A stretch of DNA of 64,000 nucleotides from a virus: the IMG/VR virus record IMGVR_UViG_3300031840_000582, positions 1 through 64,000 of that record, one strand, 5' to 3'. Positions 20,140-63,756 of this stretch are shown here, piece by piece. The position numbers were made by a program, and so were the translations under genes. How positions within the stretch are numbered: position 1 is the first letter of the stretch; each line of letters starts with the position of its first letter. The notes under the pieces were generated by a model that searched no databases, was not told the DNA's origin, and saw only the letters and a program-made list of their open reading frames with translations.

Positions 20140-20157
20140 CATACTATTTATAGTATG
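20140..20157 (+). promoter_or_regulatory. Palindromic ACTATTTATA motif overlapping the HNH start codon
   Basis: CATACTA-TTTA-TAGTATG is a perfect 7-base-pair inverted repeat containing the recurring motif (20143-20152). Its right arm ends in the ATG of the HNH gene. If the motif is a -10-like element, the mRNA would be leaderless or nearly so; if transcribed, the start codon would be buried in a hairpin. No Shine-Dalgarno sequence is visible before this ATG. Confidence 0.5.
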
Positions 20158-25031: not shown

Positions 25032-28000
25032 GTGGGGGTAAACTTGAAGTTTGCACATATCGCGGATACACACATCCGCAATTATAAGTATCATAAAGAA
25101 TATCGAGCTATCTTCGATCAAATTTATGACCGATTGAAAAAAGAGAAAGTTGACTACATTGTACATTGTGGCGACTTAGCACATACAAAAACACAACTTT
25201 CTCCTGAATATTTTGATTTGGCTGCATCGTTCCTGAGTAATCTTGCGGACATTGCGCCTACCTATATCATTCTTGGAAACCATGATGGCAACCTTAAGAA
25301 CGAGCACAGGCAGGATGCAATTACGCCTATTGCAAAGGCACTAAACCATCCAAATCTACATCTCTTGCGAGACGCAGGCGAGACTGTGCTAAGCGATGAC
25401 TTAGCATTTAATGTTCTATCTGTGTTCGATGAGGAGAATTGGGTCAAGCCATCCAGCGACGAACGTATCAATATCGCGCTGTATCACGGTTCTGTATCAG
25501 GCGTTAAGACTGACACAGGCTGGGTGATGACACATGGCGACCACCCAATCGAAGTCTTTGAGGGACATGATTATGTGTTCCTTGGAGATATTCACAAAAC
25601 GAACCAGATCCTTGATGATGAGGGTCGGGTAAGGTATCCGGGCTCCACTGTTCAACAGAACTTTGGTGAGACAGATGACAAAGGATTCTTGCTGTGGAAC
25701 ATCCAAAGCAAAGATGACTTTACTTGTGACCACATCGTAATTCCGAATCCCAAGCCTTTTATAACAATAAATCTAACCCCCACCGGGCGCATGCCCAAAG
25801 GCTTATCTGTTAAAAAGGGATCGCGTTTACGACTTGTGTCTAACAATAATTTGTCTCTTGAAGCGATGCGGAAGGCAGTAGATGTCGCAAAACAACGCTT
25901 CAAGCCCGATACCATATCGTTTCTTAACCGCGCCGCTGGGGAGCGTGGCAACGTTGAAGAAATCACCGATAGTATTCATCAGGATGATATGCGTAACCCG
26001 CAGATTCAAGAGGAATTAATTCGTGAGTATCTGGTAGACTACCAAGTTACCGAAAGCTTGATGAAGAAGGTACTAGACCTAAACTCACTATACATCAAGA
26101 AAGCCGAAGAAAGCGAAGAAATTTCTAGAAACATTAAGTGGCGTATTGGTGAGCTACAATGGGATAATTTGTTTAACTACGGAGACAGCAATCGAATTGA
26201 CTTTGCTCGTCTGAACGGAACTGTTGGTATCTTTGGAAAGAATTATTCTGGCAAGTCCAGTATTATTGATAGCTTATTGTATACAATTTTTAATACAACT
26301 TCCAAGAACGAGCGTAAGAACGTAAATATTATCAACCAGAACAAAGAAGATGGTTCAGGCGAAGTGGTCATCAACATTGGTGATGAACAATATTACATCC
26401 GACGAAGCTCGTCTAAATACACAAAGCGACTCAAGGGGGTCGAGACTCTTGAAGCAAAAACCGATCTTGACTTTTTCAAGATTGATGCGAACGGAGAAAA
26501 GGTAAGTTTAAATGGACTCACAAGAAACGACACAGACAGAAACATCAGAAAGGTATTCGGATCCATTGATGACTTTCTACTCACTAGTTTGTCTAGCCAG
26601 TTGGATAGTCTTTCCTTTATTAGGGAAGGCAGCACAAAACGGAAGGAAATCTTGGCAAAGTTTCTCGACTTGGAGATCTTCGAAAAGAAATTCAAACTAG
26701 CAAAAGACGATGCTGCTGATATGAAGGGTGCTCTTCGACGCTTGGAAGGCAGGGAGTATGACGCCGAGATCGAAGCAGCAGAGCAAGAGCATGCTCAATG
26801 TGAAGAGAACCTAGAAGAACAGCAGTCTGTTTGCGAGACTCTCAGAAACGAAATATCCAAATTAGTTTCTGGCATTGAAGAAGTAGATCGTATGATCGAT
26901 TCTATCCCAGCGGAAATGATTGATATCGTAAACGTTAAGGCTGAACTAGTGCGTAAGCGTTCCTTGTTAGAGAGAACACAGAATAGTCTAAAAAATAACA
27001 AGACAAATTTACAAGAGAAAGAAGCACTCGTTGAGAAAATTGAAGAGTTTCTAGACAACTATGATATTGAAGACTTAATTAAGAAGCAAAGCGATTCAAG
27101 CAATCTCTGGAATCGGATCAATGATTTGCGAGCGGAGCTTGAACGAATTGATAAAAAGGCCTCGTCCCTAAACGACCCTGAGTTTCTAAGAGGTTGTAAG
27201 TGTCTTCGTGAAGCAGAGGACGCACTGGCTAAGAAGCCAGAGGTTCAAGAGAAGATCGATATATTTACCACTGAGCACCGTGCGATGGACCCGGAGGGTG
27301 TAGACAAGAAGGTGGAGCAATATAACTCTTTGGTTGCTAAGAAAGACCAAACTCAGAGAGATATTACCAACACACAATTGCTAATCGCTCAGAATGAAAA
27401 TTCTATGAGTAGCCTAATCTCTGATATCGAAGCTTTGGAGGAAAAAGAATCTTCTTACGAAGATAACAAAGAAGCGATTGAAAACTTAGAAGCTCTGCTG
27501 GCACAGAAGCAAGAGAGTGAGTCTGCTCTACAAGACCGTGAAACAAAGCTACAAGCTTGTGAAAAAGAGATTGTTACCCATCATCGTCTTGTTGGTTCGT
27601 TAGAGCAGAAGGTGCTAAATATCAAAGAACAAAAGCAAGAGTACATTGATCTTCGTGAGCAGTTTGCGGCATATGATCTATACATGCGCTGTATGCACCC
27701 TAATGGTATTGCTTATGATGTCATTAAAAAGAAGCTGCCGGTTATCAATCAAGAGATTGCGAAGGTTCTCGCCAACCTCACTACCTTTGAGGTTCTTTTT
27801 GAAGAAGAGGGAAATAAGCTAGATATCTTTATCAAGCACCCAAGCCATGACCCTCGACCGCTATCAATGGCATCTGGGGCAGAGAAAACAATGGCTGCAA
27901 TGGCGATTCGTTTGGCTTTCCTAGCCGTATCTAATTTACCAACCAGCGATATCATGGTTCTGGACGAGCCGGGTACTGCTTTAGATGAAGAACATTTGCA

Positions 28001-28142
28001 GTCCTTTACGCAGCTTCTTGACATGATTAAGGCACATTTCAAGACCATTTTGCTAATCTCGCACCTTGACTCTTTGAAAGATGTTGTAGATTCAACACTT
28101 GACATTTCTAAGAAACAAGGTTATGCTTATATAAATCAGTAA
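25032..28142 (+). CDS. Fused SbcD/Mre11-like nuclease and SbcC/Rad50-like ATPase
   Basis: One 1,036-residue chain carries both halves of the recombination nuclease that T4 encodes as gp47 and gp46. The N-terminal phosphoesterase has ADTHI (Asp12), HCGD (45-48), LGNHD (near 82-86), an ALYHGS histidine and LGDIH. The ABC-type ATPase follows: Walker A GKNYSGKS (402-409, Lys408), a long Glu/Lys-rich coiled coil (about 560-880), signature MASGAEKTMA near 947, and Walker B MVLDEPG (Asp978, Glu979). The zinc hook is atypical: C722-K-C724 instead of CxxC. A GTG at 25032 opens the frame, but TTG at 25044, after GGGGG and better placed from the promoter, may be the true start. Likely role: end resection in recombination-dependent replication. 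Confidence 0.9.
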   Translation: MGVNLKFAHIADTHIRNYKYHKEYRAIFDQIYDRLKKEKVDYIVHCGDLAHTKTQLSPEYFDLAASFLSNLADIAPTYIILGNHDGNLKNEHRQDAITPIAKALNHPNLHLLRDAGETVLSDDLAFNVLSVFDEENWVKPSSDERINIALYHGSVSGVKTDTGWVMTHGDHPIEVFEGHDYVFLGDIHKTNQILDDEGRVRYPGSTVQQNFGETDDKGFLLWNIQSKDDFTCDHIVIPNPKPFITINLTPTGRMPKGLSVKKGSRLRLVSNNNLSLEAMRKAVDVAKQRFKPDTISFLNRAAGERGNVEEITDSIHQDDMRNPQIQEELIREYLVDYQVTESLMKKVLDLNSLYIKKAEESEEISRNIKWRIGELQWDNLFNYGDSNRIDFARLNGTVGIFGKNYSGKSSIIDSLLYTIFNTTSKNERKNVNIINQNKEDGSGEVVINIGDEQYYIRRSSSKYTKRLKGVETLEAKTDLDFFKIDANGEKVSLNGLTRNDTDRNIRKVFGSIDDFLLTSLSSQLDSLSFIREGSTKRKEILAKFLDLEIFEKKFKLAKDDAADMKGALRRLEGREYDAEIEAAEQEHAQCEENLEEQQSVCETLRNEISKLVSGIEEVDRMIDSIPAEMIDIVNVKAELVRKRSLLERTQNSLKNNKTNLQEKEALVEKIEEFLDNYDIEDLIKKQSDSSNLWNRINDLRAELERIDKKASSLNDPEFLRGCKCLREAEDALAKKPEVQEKIDIFTTEHRAMDPEGVDKKVEQYNSLVAKKDQTQRDITNTQLLIAQNENSMSSLISDIEALEEKESSYEDNKEAIENLEALLAQKQESESALQDRETKLQACEKEIVTHHRLVGSLEQKVLNIKEQKQEYIDLREQFAAYDLYMRCMHPNGIAYDVIKKKLPVINQEIAKVLANLTTFEVLFEEEGNKLDIFIKHPSHDPRPLSMASGAEKTMAAMAIRLAFLAVSNLPTSDIMVLDEPGTALDEEHLQSFTQLLDMIKAHFKTILLISHLDSLKDVVDSTLDISKKQGYAYINQ
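28099..28127 (+). promoter_or_regulatory. Sigma70-type promoter candidate
   Basis: TTGACA (28099-28104), 17 bases, then TATGCT (28122-28127) lie in the last codons of the nuclease-ATPase gene, 39 bases before the ATG at 28166. The -35 hexamer and spacing are perfect; the -10 matches 4 of 6. Confidence 0.4.
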
Positions 28143-38734: not shown

Positions 38735-40846
38735 ATGTCCAATCGTAAATTAGTAGGAACCGAATTTAGAAACGAGTTTCTTAGATCACTTAACGTTCTC
38801 GCCCCCCGTATTGCAGCGGCGATTGAAAAGTATGGTGAAGATACCGTTGATGTTATTAACTTTGCCTCGTCAGGCACGGCCACGCTTAACAATGTAAGCA
38901 TTACTGGCCTGACGGATATAGTTTCTGATGCTACAACCGAAGATGTGTTGGATATTACAGCAGACTCTCTTACGACAGCTAATGTTATCGACATTTCAGC
39001 AGATGCCTTAACGACAGGAACTATCCTAAACCTTGTTTCTGATTCATCAGACAATAGTTCCCGCACTCTTTTGAAAGTTTTAAACGACAATTCAAGTGCA
39101 ACAGGAACGAGCGCCGCATCGTTTGAGACACATGCAGTTCAAACTTGCGTATCAATCCACAACGACAATACAGAAACTGATTTTGGACCTATTCTCACTG
39201 TAAATAGAAAGTCCTCCACGGTTGCTGATGATATGGGAGTTGGGATAATAAACTTTCAAGGTCTTACAGATGGTAGCACCTCAACTGGATTCGCTAGGAT
39301 ATCAGCAGAGGCAAGTGATGTATCAGATGCAACACCCAGAGGAAAATTAATTCTTCGGGCTCAATTAAATATTGATGGCTCTGAACCTAACGCTGTTGAA
39401 GAACTTATGTCCTTGGGCGGGGGAACCGGGTCAAACGCACCAGAAGTTGTTATTAATGATCTAAGCTATGATGTTGACTTCCGCGTTGAATCAAATGGCG
39501 AGACTCACATGCTGTTTGTTGACGGAGGAAACAACCGGGTCAGCATTGGAGACTCCACAGACACCCCAGCGGCAACACTAGAAATTTCAAATGCAAGTAA
39601 TGGCGGCGTTCCGCTTGTCCTACTGGACTCAAACGACACAGACAAAATATGCCTTGACATCGATGCAGCCAACATCGACGCAGATGTAATTGATATCGCA
39701 GCCGACGCAGTAACTACAGCTTTTGTCATGGATGTTACCGCAGATGGACTTACAACCGGTGGTATCCTAAACCTTGTTTCGGATTCTTCAGATACAAGCG
39801 ATAGAACACTTGTCAAAGTTACTAATGATAATACAGGTGCAACTGGCACCACAATTATGCATCTTAAGAGCGATGCCGTAACTGATGATAATCCAATTTT
39901 GCTTATCGAATCCTCTGCTGCCGACACTGGTCCCGTTCTTGAACTAAGAAATACAAACGCTGGTGTCAATCGTGAAGCAATCTTAAAATTTACAAGAAGC
40001 GATACATCAGCGGAAGCAGACGACATGGATCTTGGGCGTTTGCAATTTCAAGGTGCTGACAGTGGCAACAATGATACTATATATGTAGCTATTTTGGCAG
40101 AGGCCTCTGATGTCACTGACGGCGATGAGGGAGGCCTATTAAAATTTAGACTGTTCTCAGGCGGAACAGGAGGCACAGCCTCCTCCAATACGCTATTCTC
40201 AATCGGCGGTGAAGACGTTGCAAATTCAACACCTTGTGAAGTTATCGTCAACGAAGACGGCATCGACTGCAACTTCCGTGTTGAATCAGATAACAATACC
40301 CATATGCTCTTCGTTGATGCGGCTGACGACACCGTAACGGTCGGAGGAGACGTTGCTCTTCACAAAGATGGTTTCGCTGTTATAAACAATTATCAGGCAA
40401 CAACTTTTGAAAATACTTTAGCAGACGGGCGATTTGGTAGCGCCGAGATATTAAGATACTCTCCGGGCGCGGATGACACTCTTACAGCAGGGCAATTGTT
40501 TTTCTTGCACACAGACGGCACTTGGGACAGCACGGATGCTGATGCAGTTGCCACTGGCGCAACACAAATGCTTGGTATTGGCCTTGGTGGTTCGTCTCAG
40601 ACAGTTGGCTGTTTAATTAAAGGATTCATACGAATCCCATCTACAGAAATACTAAACCTTCCCGGCTCTGGTGCCTGCGACGGCCTGCCTCTTTATGTTT
40701 CAACAACAGCAGGCCACCTAGACTTTACAGCCCCATCTGGAAATGGTGACTTTGTTCGCACCGTTGGTTACGCAATTGATGATGATGGTGGCGACGTTCT
40801 TATTTACTTCAATCCAGATGCAACACATGTGGAGATTACAGCGTAA
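38735..40846 (+). CDS. Fibre-like virion protein with two internal repeats (703 aa)
   Basis: Two repeats of about 250 residues make up most of the protein. Each begins with a DVIDIAADAVTT/LTTGGILNLVSDSS-type beta segment and ends with DFRVESNGETHMLFVDGGNN, the usual repeat closing seen in trimeric beta-helical fibres. The last 130 residues form a separate domain (GADDTLTAGQLFFLHTDGTW ... DGLPLYVSTTAGHLDF) resembling DUF2190-type capsid modules. The gene is placed among head genes, so a head fibre or capsid-surface projection is more likely than a tail fibre. Its stop overlaps the methyltransferase start. Confidence 0.65.
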   Translation: MSNRKLVGTEFRNEFLRSLNVLAPRIAAAIEKYGEDTVDVINFASSGTATLNNVSITGLTDIVSDATTEDVLDITADSLTTANVIDISADALTTGTILNLVSDSSDNSSRTLLKVLNDNSSATGTSAASFETHAVQTCVSIHNDNTETDFGPILTVNRKSSTVADDMGVGIINFQGLTDGSTSTGFARISAEASDVSDATPRGKLILRAQLNIDGSEPNAVEELMSLGGGTGSNAPEVVINDLSYDVDFRVESNGETHMLFVDGGNNRVSIGDSTDTPAATLEISNASNGGVPLVLLDSNDTDKICLDIDAANIDADVIDIAADAVTTAFVMDVTADGLTTGGILNLVSDSSDTSDRTLVKVTNDNTGATGTTIMHLKSDAVTDDNPILLIESSAADTGPVLELRNTNAGVNREAILKFTRSDTSAEADDMDLGRLQFQGADSGNNDTIYVAILAEASDVTDGDEGGLLKFRLFSGGTGGTASSNTLFSIGGEDVANSTPCEVIVNEDGIDCNFRVESDNNTHMLFVDAADDTVTVGGDVALHKDGFAVINNYQATTFENTLADGRFGSAEILRYSPGADDTLTAGQLFFLHTDGTWDSTDADAVATGATQMLGIGLGGSSQTVGCLIKGFIRIPSTEILNLPGSGACDGLPLYVSTTAGHLDFTAPSGNGDFVRTVGYAIDDDGGDVLIYFNPDATHVEITA

Positions 40847-41436
40847 TGCTAAAAACAAGAATTGAAGATCAAAATTTAATTTTTACTGATGACGCCATTA
40901 TAGTGGAAAATGATAAGCTTCAAAATCTCCATGCTGGTATTGAAGTTATGATGGATTGGGAAAGTGGCTTGATGAGGAGGCACGCTGAATTAGTATGCGA
41001 GAATGGAGGAGATATACTAGAAATAGGGTTTGGCATGGGCATCTCGGCTAACTTTATTCAAGAACTAAATCCTGATTCTCACACAATCGTAGAAAGTCAT
41101 CCACAAATTATAGAAAAGCTAAAAGAATGGGCTACTGATAAGCCAAGTGTTACTGTGGTCGAAGGTAGGTGGTTTGATGTGATAGACCAGCTTGGCGTAT
41201 ATGATGGCGTTTTCTACGATACATTTGGTGACGATGATTATTCAAAGTTTGGCACAGAGTCAGTTAAATTTACAAAGCCCGGTAGTATTATCACAGCGTG
41301 GAATGCTGTAAGCCAGCCAAATCAAAATTTATATGGGTTCGCTGGTAACGTGACATACGAAGAAATAGATGTAACTCCCCCAGACAATGGATATTTTTTT
41401 GGTAACAAATATTATTTATTTAAGGTTGTAGTGTAA
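40846..41436 (+). CDS. SAM-dependent methyltransferase of the guanidinoacetate/arginine (GAMT/RMT2) type
   Basis: The 196-residue enzyme has the class I SAM fold: VMMDWESGLM (34-43), motif I DILEIGFGMGIS (56-67), the ribose-binding acidic IVESHP (Glu83) and catalytic-loop FYDTFGDD (123-130, Asp125). All four line up with guanidinoacetate methyltransferase, whose corresponding motifs are ERWETPYM, VLEVGFGMAIA, IIECN and LYDTYP, and with the related arginine methyltransferase RMT2. Those enzymes methylate a guanidino nitrogen. It overlaps both neighbours (TAATG), so it is co-translated with virion surface proteins. It may modify arginine in a virion or host protein, or a small guanidino compound. 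Confidence 0.8.
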   Translation: MLKTRIEDQNLIFTDDAIIVENDKLQNLHAGIEVMMDWESGLMRRHAELVCENGGDILEIGFGMGISANFIQELNPDSHTIVESHPQIIEKLKEWATDKPSVTVVEGRWFDVIDQLGVYDGVFYDTFGDDDYSKFGTESVKFTKPGSIITAWNAVSQPNQNLYGFAGNVTYEEIDVTPPDNGYFFGNKYYLFKVVV

Positions 41437-42176: not shown

Positions 42177-42203
42177 TTTATAGGATACTACTTATTAATA
42201 CAC

Positions 42204-42227
42204 ATGTCACAAATGGAGCAATTGTGA
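42204..42227 (+). CDS. Seven-residue mini-ORF overlapping the bS21 start
   Basis: ATG 42204 reads MSQMEQL and stops at TGA 42225-42227, which overlaps the GTG of bS21 as GTGA. Its own ribosome site is poor. It could couple bS21 translation to upstream initiation, or be chance. Confidence 0.2.
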   Translation: MSQMEQL

Positions 42228-42517
42228 GCAACAGAAACTATAGAAACCACAGAGGTCGGGACCATAATCGTAGAGAAAGATATACCCCACCTCATGTAGG
42301 CAAGAGGCACAGCAATTTAACAGTCGTGCCGAGACAAAATGAGCCAATCGAAAGAGCGATTCGCAGATTTATTAAAAAATGTAAGAAGATGAAGATCATC
42401 GAAACATACAGAGAAAAGACTGATTATTATGAAAAGCCATCAGTTGTGCGAAGAAAAAAAGCAATTCGCCGCCAGAGAGCAATTGATAAGGCAAACAAAG
42501 CTAACGCAAACAGATAG
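42224..42517 (+). CDS. rpsU: Ribosomal protein bS21 homologue
   Basis: Residues 33-97 match bacterial bS21 along its whole length: TVVPRQNEPIERAIRRFIKK, then EKTDYYEKPSVVRRKKAI and a basic helical end. E. coli bS21 is 71 residues. Here a basic 32-residue extension (SNRNYRNHRGRDHNRRERY) precedes the domain. bS21 binds the 30S platform next to the 16S rRNA 3' end, where start sites are chosen. Phage copies of bS21 are known from marine viruses. The start is GTG with GGAG before it. The gene stands alone between the surface-protein block and the scaffold/capsid block, suggesting late expression and a bias of translation towards phage mRNA. Confidence 0.88.
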   Translation: MSNRNYRNHRGRDHNRRERYTPPHVGKRHSNLTVVPRQNEPIERAIRRFIKKCKKMKIIETYREKTDYYEKPSVVRRKKAIRRQRAIDKANKANANR

Positions 42518-42548: not shown

Positions 42549-42569
42549 CTACATACTATTTAGATGTAG
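42549..42569 (+). promoter_or_regulatory. ACTATTTAGA motif inside a short inverted repeat
   Basis: CTACAT (42549-42554) and ATGTAG (42564-42569) flank the motif (42555-42564). It lies 50 bases before the scaffold gene and 30 bases after bS21, so it probably starts scaffold and capsid transcription. Confidence 0.45.
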
Positions 42570-42604: not shown

Positions 42605-43657
42605 ATGTCAACAATGTTAGAACAAGCTTTAGTAGATGCAACTGCTCTTAGAGAAGCAGCACTTAAAAACGCAGAGACTGCAATTCTTGAGAGATACGCA
42701 GATGACGTGAGAACCACCATGGACTCGCTCTTGGCTGAACAAGAGGATATGGGCGACATGGGAATGGAAATTGCCGACGAAGATCCAGAAGGCGACATTC
42801 CAGATGCAGCCACTAGTGATCTTAAGGTGTGTCCAGACGATGATGAAGTAAAGACTTTTACTTTTTCTCTAAACGACCTCCGCGACACCCTTGATAAGCT
42901 AAGTGATGATGAGGCTGGAGAGCCAGAAGATTCAGAAGAGCTTGCTATGGACATGGGCGCTGAGCCTGAAGAAGAAGAGTTGGAATTGCAAGAAGATCTA
43001 GAGTTAGACGAAGAGATGCTATTTGAGTATCCTGAAGGACAAGTTGACGAGCAAGAAGAAATTACAGAAGACGAGACTGCACTCCCAGAAGGTATCGACC
43101 TAGATAAATTGGTTGAGGAAGTTATCGTTGATCTTGCTGGAGATGAACTAACTGGCTGGGCAGGACGCCCACGATCAGATGTTGACCACGCCAAAGAAAT
43201 TAGATTAGCACGGGCTGCTTCCACCGAGGCCAAAGAGCAAAATGAAAAGCTCAAGGCAGCACTCGAAGAACTCGCAGAGTCAAGCAAGGCTGTAGCTAAT
43301 GAAAACCAACTTCTCAAGCAAACACTTGAGACTATGAAAGAGAAACTTGAAGAAGTCAATCTTTCAAATGCAAAACTACTTTACATGAATCGGACATTGA
43401 ATAGTCCCTCCCTGAATGAGCGGCAAAAAACTAAAATTGTCGAATCTATTCAGAATTCTGATTCAGTTGAAGAAGCGAAGGTAATTTTTGAAACCCTTCA
43501 AAGCGCAGTGGGCTCTTCCAAGAAGAAGCCAGAATCACTACGCGAAGCTATCAAGAGACCTTCTATTTCCGTGCCTAGTAGAAGAAACAAATCTTCACAA
43601 CGTGATACGATTGTGAAAGAACGCTTCCAACGCTTGGCTGGAATTTCTAGAAACTGA
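42605..43657 (+). CDS. Prohead scaffold/core protein (gp22-like)
   Basis: The 350-residue protein is built as a scaffold. It has a helical start, a very acidic middle (EEEELELQEDLELDEEMLFE), then a long coiled coil (ASTEAKEQNEKLKAALEELA) leading to LSNAKLLYMNRTLNSPSLNE, and a conserved basic end (KERFQRLAGISRN). It lies directly before the capsid gene, as in T4. It would form the core around which the capsid shell assembles and be degraded by the gp21-type protease. GGGAATC before the ATG is a fair ribosome site, and the gene has an upstream promoter-like motif. Confidence 0.85.
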   Translation: MSTMLEQALVDATALREAALKNAETAILERYADDVRTTMDSLLAEQEDMGDMGMEIADEDPEGDIPDAATSDLKVCPDDDEVKTFTFSLNDLRDTLDKLSDDEAGEPEDSEELAMDMGAEPEEEELELQEDLELDEEMLFEYPEGQVDEQEEITEDETALPEGIDLDKLVEEVIVDLAGDELTGWAGRPRSDVDHAKEIRLARAASTEAKEQNEKLKAALEELAESSKAVANENQLLKQTLETMKEKLEEVNLSNAKLLYMNRTLNSPSLNERQKTKIVESIQNSDSVEEAKVIFETLQSAVGSSKKKPESLREAIKRPSISVPSRRNKSSQRDTIVKERFQRLAGISRN

Positions 43658-43684
43658 TAGATTATATCTAAAATTATACTAAAA

Positions 43685-43695
43685 AAGGAGGTGAT
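43685..43695 (+). promoter_or_regulatory. Extended perfect Shine-Dalgarno of the capsid gene
   Basis: AAGGAGGTGAT is fully complementary to the conserved 3' end of bacterial 16S rRNA over 11 bases, and lies 4 bases before ATG 43700 (GGAGG ends 8 bases before it). It fixes ATG 43700 as the start over the in-frame GTG at 43691 inside the site. Confidence 0.9.
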
Positions 43696-43699
43696 AAAA

Positions 43700-45586
43700 A
43701 TGTCAGTATTAGATAAATTAACTGAAGGGATCGTTTCTCGCGATCTCCGACAAGAGGCAGATGCTCTTCTCTCCAAGTGGGAAAAGACTGGTCTTCTTGA
43801 AGGCCTCGACGCCGATAATGAGCGTCAAGGCATGGCACGCTTGCTTGAAAACCAAGCGGCACAGCTTCTCAAAGAAGCATCCTCAATGGCAGGAGGAAAC
43901 GTCGAGGGCTTTGCTTCCGTCGCATTCCCACTTGTCCGTCGAGTTTTCGGTGGCCTCTTGGCTAACGATGTTGTCTCAGTGCAACCAATGAGCCTTCCAT
44001 CAGGTCTCATTTTCTTCCTTGACTTCACACATAGTACAGAGGGTGTTGGTTCAGGTGTCCGTGGACAGGGCGCTACCGGCGAGTCAGTGTACGGTGGTGG
44101 CAAGGTTGGCTTCCAGATCACTGGTGGTGTTGATCTTGGGTACGAAGGTACTCGTGCAATTGGCGCAGCCGCTGATGGTAACCCCGGCCTAGACGTTGGG
44201 TTCTACAACCTTTCAACTGGATTCTCTGCACCTACTGGTTCAACCGTGCTTGGTGGTATCACTGAGATCAAGGCACACGCTATTGGAGCTACTGCTGCTT
44301 CCGCGTCTGCTGTTATTGATCTTGCTAGCCCAACCGACGCTCAGAAGAAGGCACTTCGTTTCGACCCAGACGTTCTAGGTCTTGGCGATGGACACGAGGC
44401 AATTTTTGCTCGCGTCAAGCTTTCCGACATTGAGGAAAGTGGACAGCTTCTTAACAAGCGTATGCTTACAGCAATCTCTTGCTCTGTTGCAGGAACCAGC
44501 CTTGATGACCTAATTATGGTTCGTCGTCTTACCACTCTTGGTCAAGATAACGGTTCAACGGACTTCAACGCTGCATTGCACCCAACCGAGGCCGGATATG
44601 ACGGAAGCGAGAACACTGTGTTCTTCGTCTTCGTTGGTACTGATGCCAATGTTATCTCAACAAACCACCAAGTAGCTGCTGCTCAGGCTGCACCTACAAT
44701 CCACTTCCCACTTGCGGATAACTTCGGTGGTGCAAGAACCAATGACGGTAACGACTCTGTTGGTACTGTGATTGCTCAGACTGATTGGGGTCTCGAAAAC
44801 GAGACAGCGATCCCTGAGATCGACATCAAGGTGGACAGCATTGCTGTTACCGCAGTCACTCGTAAGCTCAAGGCTAAGTGGACCCCAGAATTGGGTCAAG
44901 ACCTCAATGCTTACCACAACCTCGATGCCGAGGTTGAGTTGACCTCAATCCTCTCCGAGCAAATTGCTCTTGAGATTGATCGTGAGATCCTACAGGATCT
45001 TATCAATGGTGCAACTGCTGGTACGCTCTACTGGTCACGTTCACCGGGTCTATTCGTCAACCGTGAGACTGGTGCTGAAATTGGTGCGTCTTCTGCCGCT
45101 CCTGATTTCACAGGTACTGTTTCCGAGTGGTACGAGACCCTCATCGAGACCATCAATGATGTGTCTGCTAGAATCCACCGTAAGACTCTACGGGGTGGTG
45201 CTAACTTCGTGATTTGTTCACCAGAAGTTGCTTCTATCCTTGAGTTCACCAGCGGATTCCGTGCAAGCGTCACTGTTGACTCTGATGCAGGCTCAATCGG
45301 TGCTGTTAGAACCGGCTCAATCTCTAAGAAGTTCGACGTGTACGTCGATCCTTACTTCCCACGGAACGTGATTCTCGTTGGTCGTAAGGGTGGTAGCTTC
45401 CTTGAGAGTGGCTTCGTCTACGCTCCATATGTGCCACTACAGGTCACACCTACTATCTTCGGTGTCGAGGACTTCGTGCCCCGCAAGGGTGTCATGACTC
45501 GCTACGCCAAGAAGATGGTCCGTGGTGATATGTACGGTCTAGTTATCTGTCGCGGTCTTATCGGTGAGGCTGGTGCAACCAGCTAA
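43700..45586 (+). CDS. Major capsid protein (gp23-like)
   Basis: The 628-residue product has the gp23 pattern. A helical pro-sequence carries MARLLENQAAQLLKE, with a predicted cut after Glu59 (LLKE|A) by the prohead protease. VQPMSLPSGLIFFLDF follows near residue 96. The C-terminal end is YAPYVPLQVTPTIFGVEDFV ... VMTRYAKKMVRGDMYGL. T4 gp23 is 521 residues, so about 100 residues are inserted, probably in the surface I-domain region. Codon choice appears more biased than in neighbouring genes, consistent with very high expression, as does the perfect ribosome site. A strong terminator follows. Confidence 0.95.
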   Translation: MSVLDKLTEGIVSRDLRQEADALLSKWEKTGLLEGLDADNERQGMARLLENQAAQLLKEASSMAGGNVEGFASVAFPLVRRVFGGLLANDVVSVQPMSLPSGLIFFLDFTHSTEGVGSGVRGQGATGESVYGGGKVGFQITGGVDLGYEGTRAIGAAADGNPGLDVGFYNLSTGFSAPTGSTVLGGITEIKAHAIGATAASASAVIDLASPTDAQKKALRFDPDVLGLGDGHEAIFARVKLSDIEESGQLLNKRMLTAISCSVAGTSLDDLIMVRRLTTLGQDNGSTDFNAALHPTEAGYDGSENTVFFVFVGTDANVISTNHQVAAAQAAPTIHFPLADNFGGARTNDGNDSVGTVIAQTDWGLENETAIPEIDIKVDSIAVTAVTRKLKAKWTPELGQDLNAYHNLDAEVELTSILSEQIALEIDREILQDLINGATAGTLYWSRSPGLFVNRETGAEIGASSAAPDFTGTVSEWYETLIETINDVSARIHRKTLRGGANFVICSPEVASILEFTSGFRASVTVDSDAGSIGAVRTGSISKKFDVYVDPYFPRNVILVGRKGGSFLESGFVYAPYVPLQVTPTIFGVEDFVPRKGVMTRYAKKMVRGDMYGLVICRGLIGEAGATS

Positions 45587-49231: not shown

Positions 49232-52200
49232 ATGTCATCAGAATTAGCAAGAAAGTTTAGATTTGTATCACCGGGTATCTTCCTCCGAGAGGTAGATAAC
49301 TCCCAGTTACCTAGATTGCCGGATGCAGTCGGCCCAACAATTATTGGCCGATACGCTTATGGTCCCGCGATGCGACCTTTCAAGGTCAACTCACTAGCTG
49401 AGTTCGTAGAGACTTACGGAAATCCAATTCCGGGTGCTTCCTCTGGAGACGTCTGGCGCGAAGGCAACAAGACTGGACCAACATACGCTGCATACGCTGC
49501 ATTTGCTTGGTTGAATTCTGGCGTTGCACCTGCTAACATTGTCCGCTTACTTGGAGACGAGCACGATCAAAATGATGGCACCGTGCTTGCACAAGCTGGT
49601 TGGACCACAACTAACCCATCTTCCACCTCAACAGTTCGTGATCCATCCGCTACTGTTTCATCAAATGGTGGTGCTTACGGTCTCTGGCTCATCCCATCAG
49701 GTTCTGGCTTGGACGATGCCAGCGGAACATCATTGGGCACTGGCTCCCTCGCAGCAATTTGGTACATGCGAGACGGAGCAATCGCTCTCAAGGGCAAGCA
49801 AGTCACTCATAAGCTACAAGCAGATCTAACTGCTGTCACAGGTAACGCTGTTATGCTCCACTCGGAAGACAGCAACTACACTTTCCAAGCGAGCATTATT
49901 GACTCTTCTTATAACAACCTATACACTACTAAGTTTAACTTCGACAGAAACTCAGAAAACTACATTCGCAAAGTTTTCAACACTGACCCGATCTTGACGA
50001 ACACAAGCGTTGTTGATACAACCACTGTCAACGAAGGTCGAGGCAATTACTTCCTTGGCGAGACTTTCGAGAGTAACCTTTTCAATATTCTCGGAGCATC
50101 TGGAAATGCATACGGAATGATTCTTCCAATTGCATCTGGTACAATTAACGACGACGCTCATGGATCAGGGTCTTTTGTCGCTGGTTACCATGACCACTTA
50201 GAAGGGTTTAAGAATCCTGAAACAGGTTGGTTCTTCTCACAGGATCTATCAACAGACAATACACACTACGCAGCCGAGCGTATGACCAAGCTATTCAAGT
50301 TCCACGGTCTTGACTCTGGCGAGTGGCTACAAAACAATATTAAGATTTCAATTGCTGACGTCCGCGCTCCTACAAGCTTGGCCAATCCTTACGGAACCTT
50401 CACTGTTCAAGTTCGTAGAGCATCTGACACGGATAAGGTGCCTGTAATCCTTGAGCAATTCACCGAGTGTGATCTTAACCCAGCATCATCTAACTTTGTT
50501 GCTGCTAAGGTTGGTGATATGTTCATGGAGTTTGACTACAGCACCAACCGTCTCAGAGAGTATGGCCAGTATAGAAATCAATCTAAGTACATTAGAATTG
50601 AGATGAACCCTGCTGTAGAGAACGGCACTTCTGATCCAGAACTTCTACCATTCGGTGTCTTCGGCCCAATTCGCCCTGTCTCATGGCGTGTGCGCTCTAA
50701 TGACGGTGATGATGGAGCCACTGGAACTCCATTGTTGAAGGTTATCAGCAATGATAGTACAATTGCAGGTGCTTCTGTTGGTTCTGGATCTGCTGGCCGC
50801 ATCGCAGCGGATGGAAAAGCAACATGTGTGCTTACAGTCGCGGATGGCGATGCTGATGTCACAGCAGTGGAAGAAGAATTCATTACACTTACATCTACGG
50901 ATGGAACGACTCGTAGATACGTTATTATTGACGATAATGCAACCACTGTGACAACAGGCACCGTTATCGCAGCCGATACTGATGTCGGTGCCACCACCTC
51001 ACCCGGTGCACTATCAGTTGGAGGTATCGCAGTAGCGATCAACACGACCGGTACTAAGGCAACACAGAATGCTTTCCTAGTTCAGTTGAAAGCTGCGATT
51101 GAGGGCGCAACAGGCCACAATGGAAAAATTACAGTATCTGCTGTCCCGACCGAGGCTAATGGCGCTCAATCAATTACGCTTACTCAAGCAACCGCTGGAG
51201 AAGCGGGCAACACAGACGTGGCCGAGAACATAGCCGCAGCAGGCGCAACTATGCTTATCCCACAGCACACCGCCGGCGGTGCTACAACCACGGCATTCGT
51301 AGGCGGCGCTGATCTCGTTGGTACAATGACCACTGTTGAGGACGGTCTAATTGCAAGTCACTACTCTCCAAATCACGTTACAAGCATTGTTTTTGGTGAG
51401 GATGATGGCACAAGCACCGGTCTTGTTGGCGCGTATCGATACACTGCATCATACGAATTCCCAAGAACTCTATTCCGAATCTCGGCTTCTGATGGTGCGA
51501 TGGGCGATCCTAAGGACGCTTACTTCGGCCTCCAGACTGGCAAGACTCACACTGACTTGTCATTCGACCCCGGATATCCTGACTACGTTCGTCGCCTACC
51601 TGTTGGTTTCGCACAGATGGACACAATCACTGGAGCCGGTACTGATAGAGAATACTCTTGGACTTTCTCACTTGATGATGTTAGAACAGTTATCGATGGC
51701 GATATTGCAAGATCCGCGTTCTTCCAGTCTGGTTCTAGAAGAAACGGTGACTCTCTAACAGCTATGAGTGGAACATACAAGCAGATTCTTGATGAGGGTC
51801 ATGACCGATTCACTTCACCTCTATACGGTGGATTTGACGGATTTGACATCTATGAGTCGGAGCCACTTAGAAATACTGCAATTAGTGCAACTGATACACA
51901 ATTCTCAAACTACGCATTCAATACAGTTAAGAGAGCAATCGACACGGTTGCAGATCCTGAGTTTGTTGAGACCAACCTTATGGTTGTTCCCGGCATCACC
52001 AATAAGAATCTTACTAAGCACCTTATTGATACTGCCGAGGCTCGCGCTGATGCTCTCGCAATTATTGACATCGAAGATGTGTACACGCCGTTCACCGAGA
52101 ACACTCAATCCTACAAGAATCGTGTTGGAAGTGTGAGCAGTGCAGTTACATCACTACGCAACAGAGACCTTGATACAAGCTACGCAGCAACCTACTACCC

Positions 52201-52822
52201 ATGGGTTCAGGTCAGAGATCCTAACAACGCCAAGCTTGTTTGGGTTCCACCTTCTGTCGTCGCTCTTGGAACATTCGGTTCATCTGAAGCTAAGACCGAG
52301 CTTTGGTTTGCCCCAGCAGGCTTTACGCGAGGCGGTTTGACTGACGGTTCCGCTGGCCTACCAGTTGTTAACGTATCCGAGAGAGTTGTTCGTAAGGACC
52401 GTGACAAGCTTTACACTGCTAAGATCAACCCAATTGCAACGTTCCCGGCAGAAGGAATCGTAATCTTCGGTCAGAAGACTCTTCAGATTACCCCATCCGC
52501 TCTTGATAGAATTAATGTTCGTCGCCTCTTGATCTTCGTGAAGAAGGAAGTCTCTAGATTCGCCGCAACAGTTCTATTCGACCAGAACGTTCAGGCTACT
52601 TGGACACGCTTTGTGAATAAGATTGATCCATTCCTCGCGAGTGTTCAGACTAGACTCGGACTCACAAGCTACAAAATCGTGCTAGATGATACCACTACAA
52701 CTGCTGACTTGGTTGACAGAAACATTCTTTACGCTAAGATCTTCTTGAAGCCAGCAAGAGCAATTGAGTACATCGCAATTGACTTTGTAATCACAAGAAC
52801 CGGAGCGTCATTCGACGATTAA
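49232..52822 (+). CDS. Tail sheath protein (gp18-like) with large insertion
   Basis: The N-terminus (FVSPGIFLREVDNSQLPRLP, VGPTIIGRYAYGPAM) and the C-terminal polymerisation domain (ALDRINVRRLLIFVKKEVSR, FDQNVQATWTRFVNKIDPFL) are typical contractile sheath features. At 1,196 residues it is nearly twice T4 gp18 (659). Part of the excess is an insertion domain at residues about 530-696, related to the repeats in the giant protein at 450-8577. Sheath subunits assemble around the tube and contract to drive DNA delivery; the additions probably project outward. TAGGAGAG precedes the ATG, and an unusual promoter-like element lies upstream. Confidence 0.93.
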   Translation: MSSELARKFRFVSPGIFLREVDNSQLPRLPDAVGPTIIGRYAYGPAMRPFKVNSLAEFVETYGNPIPGASSGDVWREGNKTGPTYAAYAAFAWLNSGVAPANIVRLLGDEHDQNDGTVLAQAGWTTTNPSSTSTVRDPSATVSSNGGAYGLWLIPSGSGLDDASGTSLGTGSLAAIWYMRDGAIALKGKQVTHKLQADLTAVTGNAVMLHSEDSNYTFQASIIDSSYNNLYTTKFNFDRNSENYIRKVFNTDPILTNTSVVDTTTVNEGRGNYFLGETFESNLFNILGASGNAYGMILPIASGTINDDAHGSGSFVAGYHDHLEGFKNPETGWFFSQDLSTDNTHYAAERMTKLFKFHGLDSGEWLQNNIKISIADVRAPTSLANPYGTFTVQVRRASDTDKVPVILEQFTECDLNPASSNFVAAKVGDMFMEFDYSTNRLREYGQYRNQSKYIRIEMNPAVENGTSDPELLPFGVFGPIRPVSWRVRSNDGDDGATGTPLLKVISNDSTIAGASVGSGSAGRIAADGKATCVLTVADGDADVTAVEEEFITLTSTDGTTRRYVIIDDNATTVTTGTVIAADTDVGATTSPGALSVGGIAVAINTTGTKATQNAFLVQLKAAIEGATGHNGKITVSAVPTEANGAQSITLTQATAGEAGNTDVAENIAAAGATMLIPQHTAGGATTTAFVGGADLVGTMTTVEDGLIASHYSPNHVTSIVFGEDDGTSTGLVGAYRYTASYEFPRTLFRISASDGAMGDPKDAYFGLQTGKTHTDLSFDPGYPDYVRRLPVGFAQMDTITGAGTDREYSWTFSLDDVRTVIDGDIARSAFFQSGSRRNGDSLTAMSGTYKQILDEGHDRFTSPLYGGFDGFDIYESEPLRNTAISATDTQFSNYAFNTVKRAIDTVADPEFVETNLMVVPGITNKNLTKHLIDTAEARADALAIIDIEDVYTPFTENTQSYKNRVGSVSSAVTSLRNRDLDTSYAATYYPWVQVRDPNNAKLVWVPPSVVALGTFGSSEAKTELWFAPAGFTRGGLTDGSAGLPVVNVSERVVRKDRDKLYTAKINPIATFPAEGIVIFGQKTLQITPSALDRINVRRLLIFVKKEVSRFAATVLFDQNVQATWTRFVNKIDPFLASVQTRLGLTSYKIVLDDTTTTADLVDRNILYAKIFLKPARAIEYIAIDFVITRTGASFDD
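50819..51318 (+). repeat. Insertion domain, copy 3 (divergent), inside the tail sheath
   Basis: The order VLTVADGDADVTA, EEFITLTSTDGTTRRYVI, VGGIAVAIN, ITVSAVPTEANGAQSITLTQ, TAGEAGNTDVAE and a closing TTTAFVGGADL mirrors copies 1 and 2 at 717-1125 and 3742-4131. Similarity is weaker but co-linear. Confidence 0.6.
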
Positions 52823-62568: not shown

Positions 62569-63756
62569 TTGTATTTTCAAACGCTCGACGATAAGGGCGA
62601 ATGTGTAGGAGTATATAGTGATGGAAAGCTCTACTTTGGAGACCTACCGAAAGGTCTCACTAAAACGTGGAAGTATGCTGAGTATTTGGAAGAAAGCGAT
62701 GTTGAGTACGCTCATCTTTACTGCGGAGGTAGGAGCCTTAATGACGTTTGTCCAGCTCACCTAATTGACGACTGGACAATTGTCGAGGATAAGTTGAAGG
62801 CGTTTTATCGTTCATTTGTGCTGTCAAAGGTAGATTTGAACGATAATTGTTTCTTTGATCTTGTTCCAAGGCAATTCCTCATGCAATACTGCGATATTCG
62901 CAATAAAATCACCGAATATGTGTTCGAAACTTACGAAAAGCCAGAAAACTATGACCATATGGTCGAGTTGACGAAGGTAATGTCTAAAATTAGGCGACAA
63001 AAGCTAAGTGTGGACGTGTCTAGCTTGTCACACAAGGCCCATGTGCCCAAGTATCGACAAGCAATGAAGAAGTTTGCACAGATTGACCCATTTTGTCGCT
63101 ATAATATCGACGGAACCAAGACTGGACGCCTTACAACACAGAAGGCATCCTTCCCTATCATGACAATGGATAAGGACTTTCGCTCTATCGTGCGACCGAC
63201 TAATGGGTGGTTTGTCGAGCTTGATTTCAACGCAGCCGAACTGCGGACGTTAATGGCTCTAGGAGGCGCTGAGACACCCCTAGAAGACATCCATGACTGG
63301 AACATGCATAACCTGTTCCCTAAAGGTACAACCCGCGACGAGGCTAAGCAGAGGTTCTTCTCGTGGCTCTACGATGATAACAAAACTAACCCATATCTAT
63401 CCAAGTATTATGATCGAGATAAGGTTCGACAATTATATTGGAAAAACGGTTCTGTTAAGACCATGTTTGGCCGAGAGATTGAAGCTGATCGTAAGCACGC
63501 ACTAAATTATATTATCCAAAGCACCACAGCAGACCTTGTTCTTCGACAGGTAATTAAAGTTCACAAAATGTTGCAGGGCATGCAGACTCACATTGCTTTT
63601 ACAATCCACGATAATATTGTGCTTGACATGCCATACGAAGAGCGTTATAATATACCCATGCTGGTTGAAGAGTTTTCCAACACTGCGTTGGGCAAGTTTT
63701 TGGTCAACGTGAAGGCTGGCAAAGACTTTGGAAGCTTGAGGACATTAAATCTATGA
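62569..63756 (+). CDS. Family A DNA polymerase, polymerase domain only
   Basis: The 395-residue protein, from a TTG start after ACGGGG, has the three pol I motifs. A is VELDFNAAELRTLM near 216-229; B is RDEAKQRFFSWLY (257-269, with the Arg, Lys, Phe and Tyr in register); C is FTIHDN (His347, Asp348). Motif C has Asn instead of the usual Glu after Asp. No 3'-5' exonuclease domain precedes it, so proofreading must come from another gene; a comparable split is known in Rhodothermus phage RM378. T4 itself uses a family B enzyme. It would replicate the phage genome with the primase at 21407. Its stop overlaps the next start (ATGA). Confidence 0.9.
   Translation: MYFQTLDDKGECVGVYSDGKLYFGDLPKGLTKTWKYAEYLEESDVEYAHLYCGGRSLNDVCPAHLIDDWTIVEDKLKAFYRSFVLSKVDLNDNCFFDLVPRQFLMQYCDIRNKITEYVFETYEKPENYDHMVELTKVMSKIRRQKLSVDVSSLSHKAHVPKYRQAMKKFAQIDPFCRYNIDGTKTGRLTTQKASFPIMTMDKDFRSIVRPTNGWFVELDFNAAELRTLMALGGAETPLEDIHDWNMHNLFPKGTTRDEAKQRFFSWLYDDNKTNPYLSKYYDRDKVRQLYWKNGSVKTMFGREIEADRKHALNYIIQSTTADLVLRQVIKVHKMLQGMQTHIAFTIHDNIVLDMPYEERYNIPMLVEEFSNTALGKFLVNVKAGKDFGSLRTLNL
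63623..63651 (+). promoter_or_regulatory. Perfect sigma70-type promoter inside the polymerase gene
   Basis: TTGACA (63623-63628), 17 bases, TATAAT (63646-63651): all 12 consensus bases match. Transcription would start near 63658, about 95 bases before the tubulin-like gene. Confidence 0.75.

What the first reader, a model, noticed from the sequence alone, without database searches (positions are those of the whole stretch)
42224..42517. Phage ribosomal protein bS21 with a new basic extension, placed before capsid genes
The bS21 match is full length, and 32 extra Arg/His-rich residues precede it. bS21 sits beside the anti-Shine-Dalgarno end of 16S rRNA. Late placement beside the capsid operon suggests remodelling of host ribosomes at the time of maximum virion synthesis.
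Basis: partly seen in the sequence, partly recalled or inferred. Interest (0 to 1): 0.75.

Follow-up and report, generated by a model that had tools for sequence, protein, structure and literature searches.

The report
Phage ribosomal protein bS21, N-extended
A marine T4-like phage carries, among its head-building genes, its own copy of ribosomal protein bS21 with an arginine-rich front tail that selection preserves; both such tails and such late-gene placements were already reported for other phages, so this is a well-supported new member of a known kind.

Summary
A 97-aa ORF at 42224-42517 holds a near-complete bS21 domain (residues 33-86, Pfam 51.2 bits against a cut-off of 27) behind about 30 extra R/H/N-rich residues. 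Strong purifying selection acts on the extension (pN 0.09, pS 1.0 against a relative), so it is a translated, functional part. It is clade-linked: other marine T4-like phages carry related M-x-[YN]-x-R-N tails, while most relatives have a normal short N-terminus. bS21 lies between prohead protease and scaffold/MCP across nearly all ~120 loci, and in an isolate, Microcystis phage Mel-JY01. It has its own promoter-like site (TACTACTTA), a strongly strand-biased motif found before structural genes, which supports late expression. Best mechanism: it replaces host bS21 on the 30S platform, its tail reaching RNA at the mRNA exit. New leads: the putative late promoter, and a 12-nt Shine-Dalgarno on the MCP gene of part of the extended clade. 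Ribosome association is untested; the host is unknown but probably uses SD.

The parts
42224..42517 (+). bS21 gene (97 aa) with N-terminal extension
   Evidence: Pfam PF01165 1e-13, PHROG 21469 9e-8; homologues in about 120 viral loci
42224..42313 (+). R/H/N-rich N-terminal extension, about residues 1-30 (MSNRNYRNHRGRDHNRRERYTPPHVGKRHS)
   Evidence: Absent from cellular bS21 and from most relatives; purifying selection; predicted unstructured, pLDDT 53-69
42320..42481 (+). bS21 domain (residues 33-86)
   Evidence: Pfam alignment; AlphaFold helices 42-56, 58-65, 72-96
42186..42194 (+). TACTACTTA, putative late promoter -10-like element of bS21
   Evidence: Strand-specific motif: 13 (+) against 0 (-) in the window, 250 against 8 in relatives' loci; conserved in L001, L002, L004, L005, L015, L032
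42215..42218 (+). Shine-Dalgarno GGAG of bS21
   Evidence: Sequence; same in L001, L002, L004, L005
42554..42562 (+). TACTATTTA, putative late promoter of the scaffold gene
42605..43657 (+). scaffold/prohead core-like gene next to bS21 (350 aa)
   Evidence: Assigned by position before MCP and by conserved synteny; no convincing profile match
43684..43695 (+). AAAGGAGGTGAT, 12-nt complement of the 16S 3' tail, SD of the MCP gene
43700..45586 (+). Gp23-type major capsid protein (ORF opens at GTG 43691; ATG 43700 is the likelier start)
   Evidence: Pfam PF07068 9.6e-72; relatives start at the same Met

Best explanation
The gene makes a phage version of ribosomal protein bS21 late in infection. 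It probably replaces the loosely held host bS21 on the 30S platform, where bS21 lines the mRNA exit and touches the SD/anti-SD helix. Its disordered, arginine-rich N-terminal tail then adds RNA contacts there: with mRNA 5' leaders just upstream of the SD, or with the 16S 3' end or bS1. This would help it out-compete host bS21 and favour initiation on abundant late phage mRNAs. Shown: gene, domain, extension, selection, synteny, promoter-like site. Inferred: late timing, ribosome entry, tail contacts, mRNA preference.
For: bS21 domain and alignments; extension translated and constrained, pN 0.09/pS 1.0 against core 0.07/0.72 for window vs L004; tail recurs in a clade of marine T4-like phages; conserved place between protease and scaffold/MCP in nearly all loci and in Mel-JY01; own promoter-like site shared with structural genes. 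Literature: HTVC008M bS21 enters E. coli 70S (PMC6375957); phage bS21 and MCP highly transcribed together (PMC9723584); Arg17 and Arg21 near the bS21 N-terminus contact the SD (PMC10123108); by my alignment the equivalent positions here are R47 and K51.
Against: No expression, ribosome or binding data for this phage. In the one biochemical test, ribosomes with phage bS21 had about 5% activity in an E. coli in vitro system (PMC6375957). The closest-studied late-bS21 phages infect Bacteroidetes, which ignore SD, and carry the gene on the opposite strand; this phage has SD before 37 of 45 genes, so that model does not carry over directly. Fold comparison was weak (best E 0.09).
Confidence: 0.6

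Rival explanations
1. The protein replaces host bS21, but the tail serves only tighter ribosome binding or protein stability, without preferring phage mRNAs: a dosage or repair role when host bS21 is limiting.
For: Most relatives at the same locus work without the tail; tail sequence and length vary while basic character stays.
Against: Does not by itself explain strong constraint at the sequence level between W and L004.
Confidence: 0.22
2. The phage bS21 slows or blocks host translation (poisoned ribosomes) rather than promoting phage translation.
For: E. coli ribosomes with HTVC008M bS21 had ~5% activity (PMC6375957).
Against: Late-type promoter and head-gene block argue for action when the phage needs maximum translation; that test used a distant host.
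Confidence: 0.08
3. The protein is a head-associated or injected nucleic-acid-binding protein that uses a bS21 fold and is packaged with the prohead.
For: Sits directly before the scaffold gene; tail is arginine-rich.
Against: No T4-like [LI]xE cleavage site in the tail (read from the sequence); bS21 core is conserved including SD-contacting basic positions; in pelagimyophages bS21 belongs to no specific gene cluster (PMC7029224).
Confidence: 0.05
4. The GAMT/Rmt2-like methyltransferase two genes upstream modifies the arginine tail, making a functional pair.
For: GAMT match 1e-16 and two-gene distance.
Against: The enzyme travels with its neighbours o38735/o41436 in loci where no bS21 was found in the stretch fetched (L091-L096), and most extended bS21 loci lack it in the stretch fetched.
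Confidence: 0.03

Closest known systems
Huge-phage rpS21 with N-terminal extensions (Al-Shayeb et al. 2020, PMC7162821)
   Same: [quoted passage not shown] same proposed function
   Different: This is a marine T4-like fragment of 66.9 kb; here selection on the tail, its clade distribution and the late-promoter context were measured.
Late-expressed bS21 of freshwater Bacteroidetes phages (Chen et al. 2022, PMC9723584)
   Same: bS21 embedded among TerL, portal, prohead protease and MCP genes; late expression shown there by metatranscriptomics
   Different: There bS21 is on the reverse strand and hosts are Bacteroidetes that do not use SD; here it is co-directional with the head genes, SD is strong, and an N-terminal extension is present
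Pelagiphage HTVC008M bS21 (Mizuno et al. 2019, PMC6375957)
   Same: phage bS21 of a marine myovirus; incorporated into E. coli 70S
   Different: No extension described in the passages read; not part of a specific gene cluster in pelagimyophages (PMC7029224)
Microcystis phage Mel-JY01 RpsU (PP395634)
   Same: same syntenic place: protease - hypothetical - RpsU - ... - MCP, same strand
   Different: 75 aa, no arginine-rich tail; the stretch read lacks the ACTAYTTA motif on its coding strand

Membership tests
bS21 (Pfam PF01165) | Domain score above the curated cut-off over nearly the full profile | tested here: met
   51.2 bits against 27, positions 1-53/55
bS21 (Pfam PF01165) | Helical bS21 fold | tested here: inconclusive
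   AlphaFold helices 42-56, 58-65, 72-96; the top four Foldseek hits come from bacterial ribosome entries (two of them bS21 chains also found by sequence), but E is only 0.09-0.22
bS21 (Pfam PF01165) | Present in the 30S subunit near the anti-SD | not testable with these tools
   needs infected cells or purified ribosomes
[quoted passage not shown]
   13 R/K/H and 2 Y in the first 30 residues; cellular bS21 start about 15 aa before the helix-1 motif
Phage rpS21 with basic/aromatic N-terminal extension (PMC7162821) | Genome above 200 kb | tested here: inconclusive
   record is a 66.9 kb fragment
Late bS21 of head-gene blocks (PMC9723584) | bS21 among TerL, portal, protease and MCP genes | tested here: met
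Late bS21 of head-gene blocks (PMC9723584) | bS21 on the strand opposite to the head genes | tested here: not met
   same strand here and in the tabulated relatives' loci
Late bS21 of head-gene blocks (PMC9723584) | Bacteroidetes host | tested here: inconclusive
   no host found; 37 of 45 genes have SD of 4 nt or more, which argues against it; Flavobacterium phage immuto has no SD at its MCP
T4-like myovirus | Gp23 MCP, Gp21-type protease, Gp20-type portal, contractile sheath | tested here: met

The most novel reading that the evidence does not exclude
The extended bS21 and the unusually long (12-nt) Shine-Dalgarno of the capsid gene form a matched initiation pair: the arginine tail at the mRNA exit handles or stabilises the long SD/anti-SD helix, giving capsid mRNA privileged access to phage-modified ribosomes.
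Probability: 0.08. Interest if true: 0.75.

Novelty: new member of a known kind. Interest (0 to 1): 0.36.

Why it matters
Phage bS21 is the most common ribosomal protein reported in virus genomes, yet what it does in infection is unproven. This clade offers a clean natural comparison: same gene, same head-gene block, with and without a conserved arginine tail, in phages whose capsid mRNA can have an exceptionally strong SD. That makes the 'specialised late ribosome' idea testable in SD-using bacteria, outside the Bacteroidetes case.

Tried and rejected
Arginine methylation by the neighbouring GAMT-like enzyme: rejected, because the enzyme follows o38735/o41436 without bS21. Host assignment: two genome-contig scans gave no cellular relative, only a phage contig (short form) binned in an Acidiferrobacteraceae MAG; too weak to name a host. 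Searching GenBank phages with the protein gave only weak matches (best E 0.03). An apparently long SD in the o37084 gene turned out to be coding sequence. A first reading of the MCP SD as 13 nt (...GATC) was wrong; it is 12 nt, GGTGAT followed by A. Phage-specific basic residues in helix 1 (R at -5, K at +3 and +5 from the Phe) look striking, but the search patterns partly selected for them and the cellular sample was the top-scoring Pseudomonadota, so no claim is made.

Full report
The finding is real. The ORF at 42224-42517 encodes 97 residues. Its residues 33-86 match the bS21 profile almost end to end, and solved bacterial bS21 chains align from residues 33-38 onward. About 30 residues precede the domain: MSNRNYRNHRGRDHNRRERYTPPHVGKRHS. 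The window is part of a 66.9 kb IMG/VR record. It is a T4-like myovirus with terminase, portal, Gp21-type protease, Gp23 capsid protein, tail sheath, tube and baseplate genes.

The extension is a genuine protein part. The only plausible start is GTG behind GGAG, kept in the four near relatives where it can be read. Comparing the window with L004, where synonymous sites are near or at saturation, the extension shows pN 0.09 against pS 1.0, and the core 0.07 against 0.72. A non-translated or idle stretch would not look like this. AlphaFold gives three helices in the core and low confidence in the tail (pLDDT 53-69), consistent with a flexible tail.

Homologues were fetched from about 120 viral loci, with some contigs fetched twice. 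N-terminal length before the helix-1 motif falls into two main groups: most have 16-23 residues, and the extended ones have 33-52. A small third group (L043, L051, L066) has 29-31. Extended members are the window, L001-L005, L012, L015, L017, L018, L032 (shortest), L103, L108, L115 and L116. Many begin M-x-[YN]-x-R-N or a close variant and end in a [KS]-x-P-[SA]-[NH] type linker. On a core-only tree the label needs 4 changes against 11.9 for shuffled labels, with ten of thirteen in one supported group; the tree has only 70 columns and is weakly resolved. In 30 Pseudomonadota genomes inspected, the nearest Met lies 15 residues before the equivalent point, so none shows such a tail (these were the best-scoring of 398 genomes).

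Placement is conserved far beyond this phage. In nearly all loci long enough to show it, bS21 lies between the prohead protease/o37084 and scaffold/MCP, on the same strand. Short forms mostly sit between o37084 and o37543. Extended forms, apart from L012, sit directly before the scaffold gene where the stretch shows it. The isolate Microcystis phage Mel-JY01 has an annotated RpsU at the same place.

Late expression has sequence support. The octamer ACTA[CT]TTA occurs 13 times on the + strand and never on the - strand of the window; 8 of the 13 lie in the 1472 intergenic bases. Over 904 kb of relatives' loci (partly redundant) the count is 250 against 8. About half of the copies lie in stretches called coding, some as a conserved coding word, and nearly all genes in these loci run on one strand, so part of the strand bias is coding bias; the intergenic enrichment is the firmer point. 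Intergenic copies share a G pair 19-20 nt upstream, a T-rich run at -16 to -13 and a purine 13 nt downstream, and lie a median 32 nt from the next start. This looks like a promoter of this lineage; the Flavobacterium phage immuto has it too, 7 against 0. One copy lies upstream of bS21 (42186-42194) and one before scaffold (42554-42562). That it is a late promoter is inferred from the genes it precedes; some copies lie before other genes (e.g. the HNH endonuclease at 20155).

The phage depends on SD: 37 of 45 genes have 4 nt or more. The MCP gene has AAAGGAGGTGAT, a 12-nt complement of the 16S 3' tail. Across relatives, a true 12-nt SD was found only before MCP genes, in the window, L002, L004, L018, L108, L115 and L113; all but L113 have the extended bS21. 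Other extended members have 5-8 nt, and most short-form relatives 6-7 (rank test p=0.002). The rows share ancestry and some contigs were counted twice, so the p-value overstates the case. This is a lead, not a result.

Comparison with the literature came last. Al-Shayeb et al. [quoted passage not shown] Chen et al. 2022 describe bS21 inside head-gene blocks and expression with MCP late in replication (PMC9723584). Mizuno et al. 2019 showed that the bS21 of pelagiphage HTVC008M enters E. coli 70S ribosomes, which then had about 5% activity in vitro (PMC6375957). In E. coli, bS21 lines the mRNA exit and two arginines near its N-terminus touch the SD (PMC10123108).

Verdict: a confirmed and well-constrained new member of a known kind. 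The additions are the selection on the tail, its clade distribution, the putative late promoter and the MCP SD lead. Ribosome association, timing and host remain untested.

Noticed in passing
window 16830, 16850, 20143, 28142, 37516, 42187, 42555, 45664, 49156 (+): Promoter-like motif [AT]ACTA[CT]TTA before many structural genes, unlike T4's TATAAATA; found on the coding strand in many marine relatives and in Flavobacterium phage immuto. No paper with 'late promoter', 'phage' and CTATTTA was found in the library.
   Followed up: partly
window 43684-43695: 12-nt perfect SD (AAAGGAGGTGAT) on the major capsid gene, also in L002, L004, L018, L108, L113, L115; most relatives have AAAGGAG.
   Followed up: partly
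window 25032-28142: Single 1036-aa ORF matching SbcD-like (residues 5-366) and SbcC-like (304-1034) families: a fused recombination endonuclease, separate genes (gp47/gp46) in T4 as recalled.
   Followed up: no
window 40846-41436: GAMT-like methyltransferase (PDB 3orh, E 1e-16) in a cassette with o38735 and o41436 that recurs in other phages without bS21 in the stretch fetched.
   Followed up: partly
window 49232-52822: Very long tail sheath (1196 aa); sheath match begins only around residue 620, so a large N-terminal or inserted part is unexplained.
   Followed up: no
window 62569-63756: 395-aa ORF with a short DNA polymerase match near its C-terminal end (residues 272-358), near the record's end; possibly a split or truncated polymerase gene.
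   Followed up: no
L102 (PBOB01000007.1): Phage contig of this lineage, with a short-form bS21, binned in an Acidiferrobacteraceae MAG; possible host hint or binning error.
   Followed up: partly
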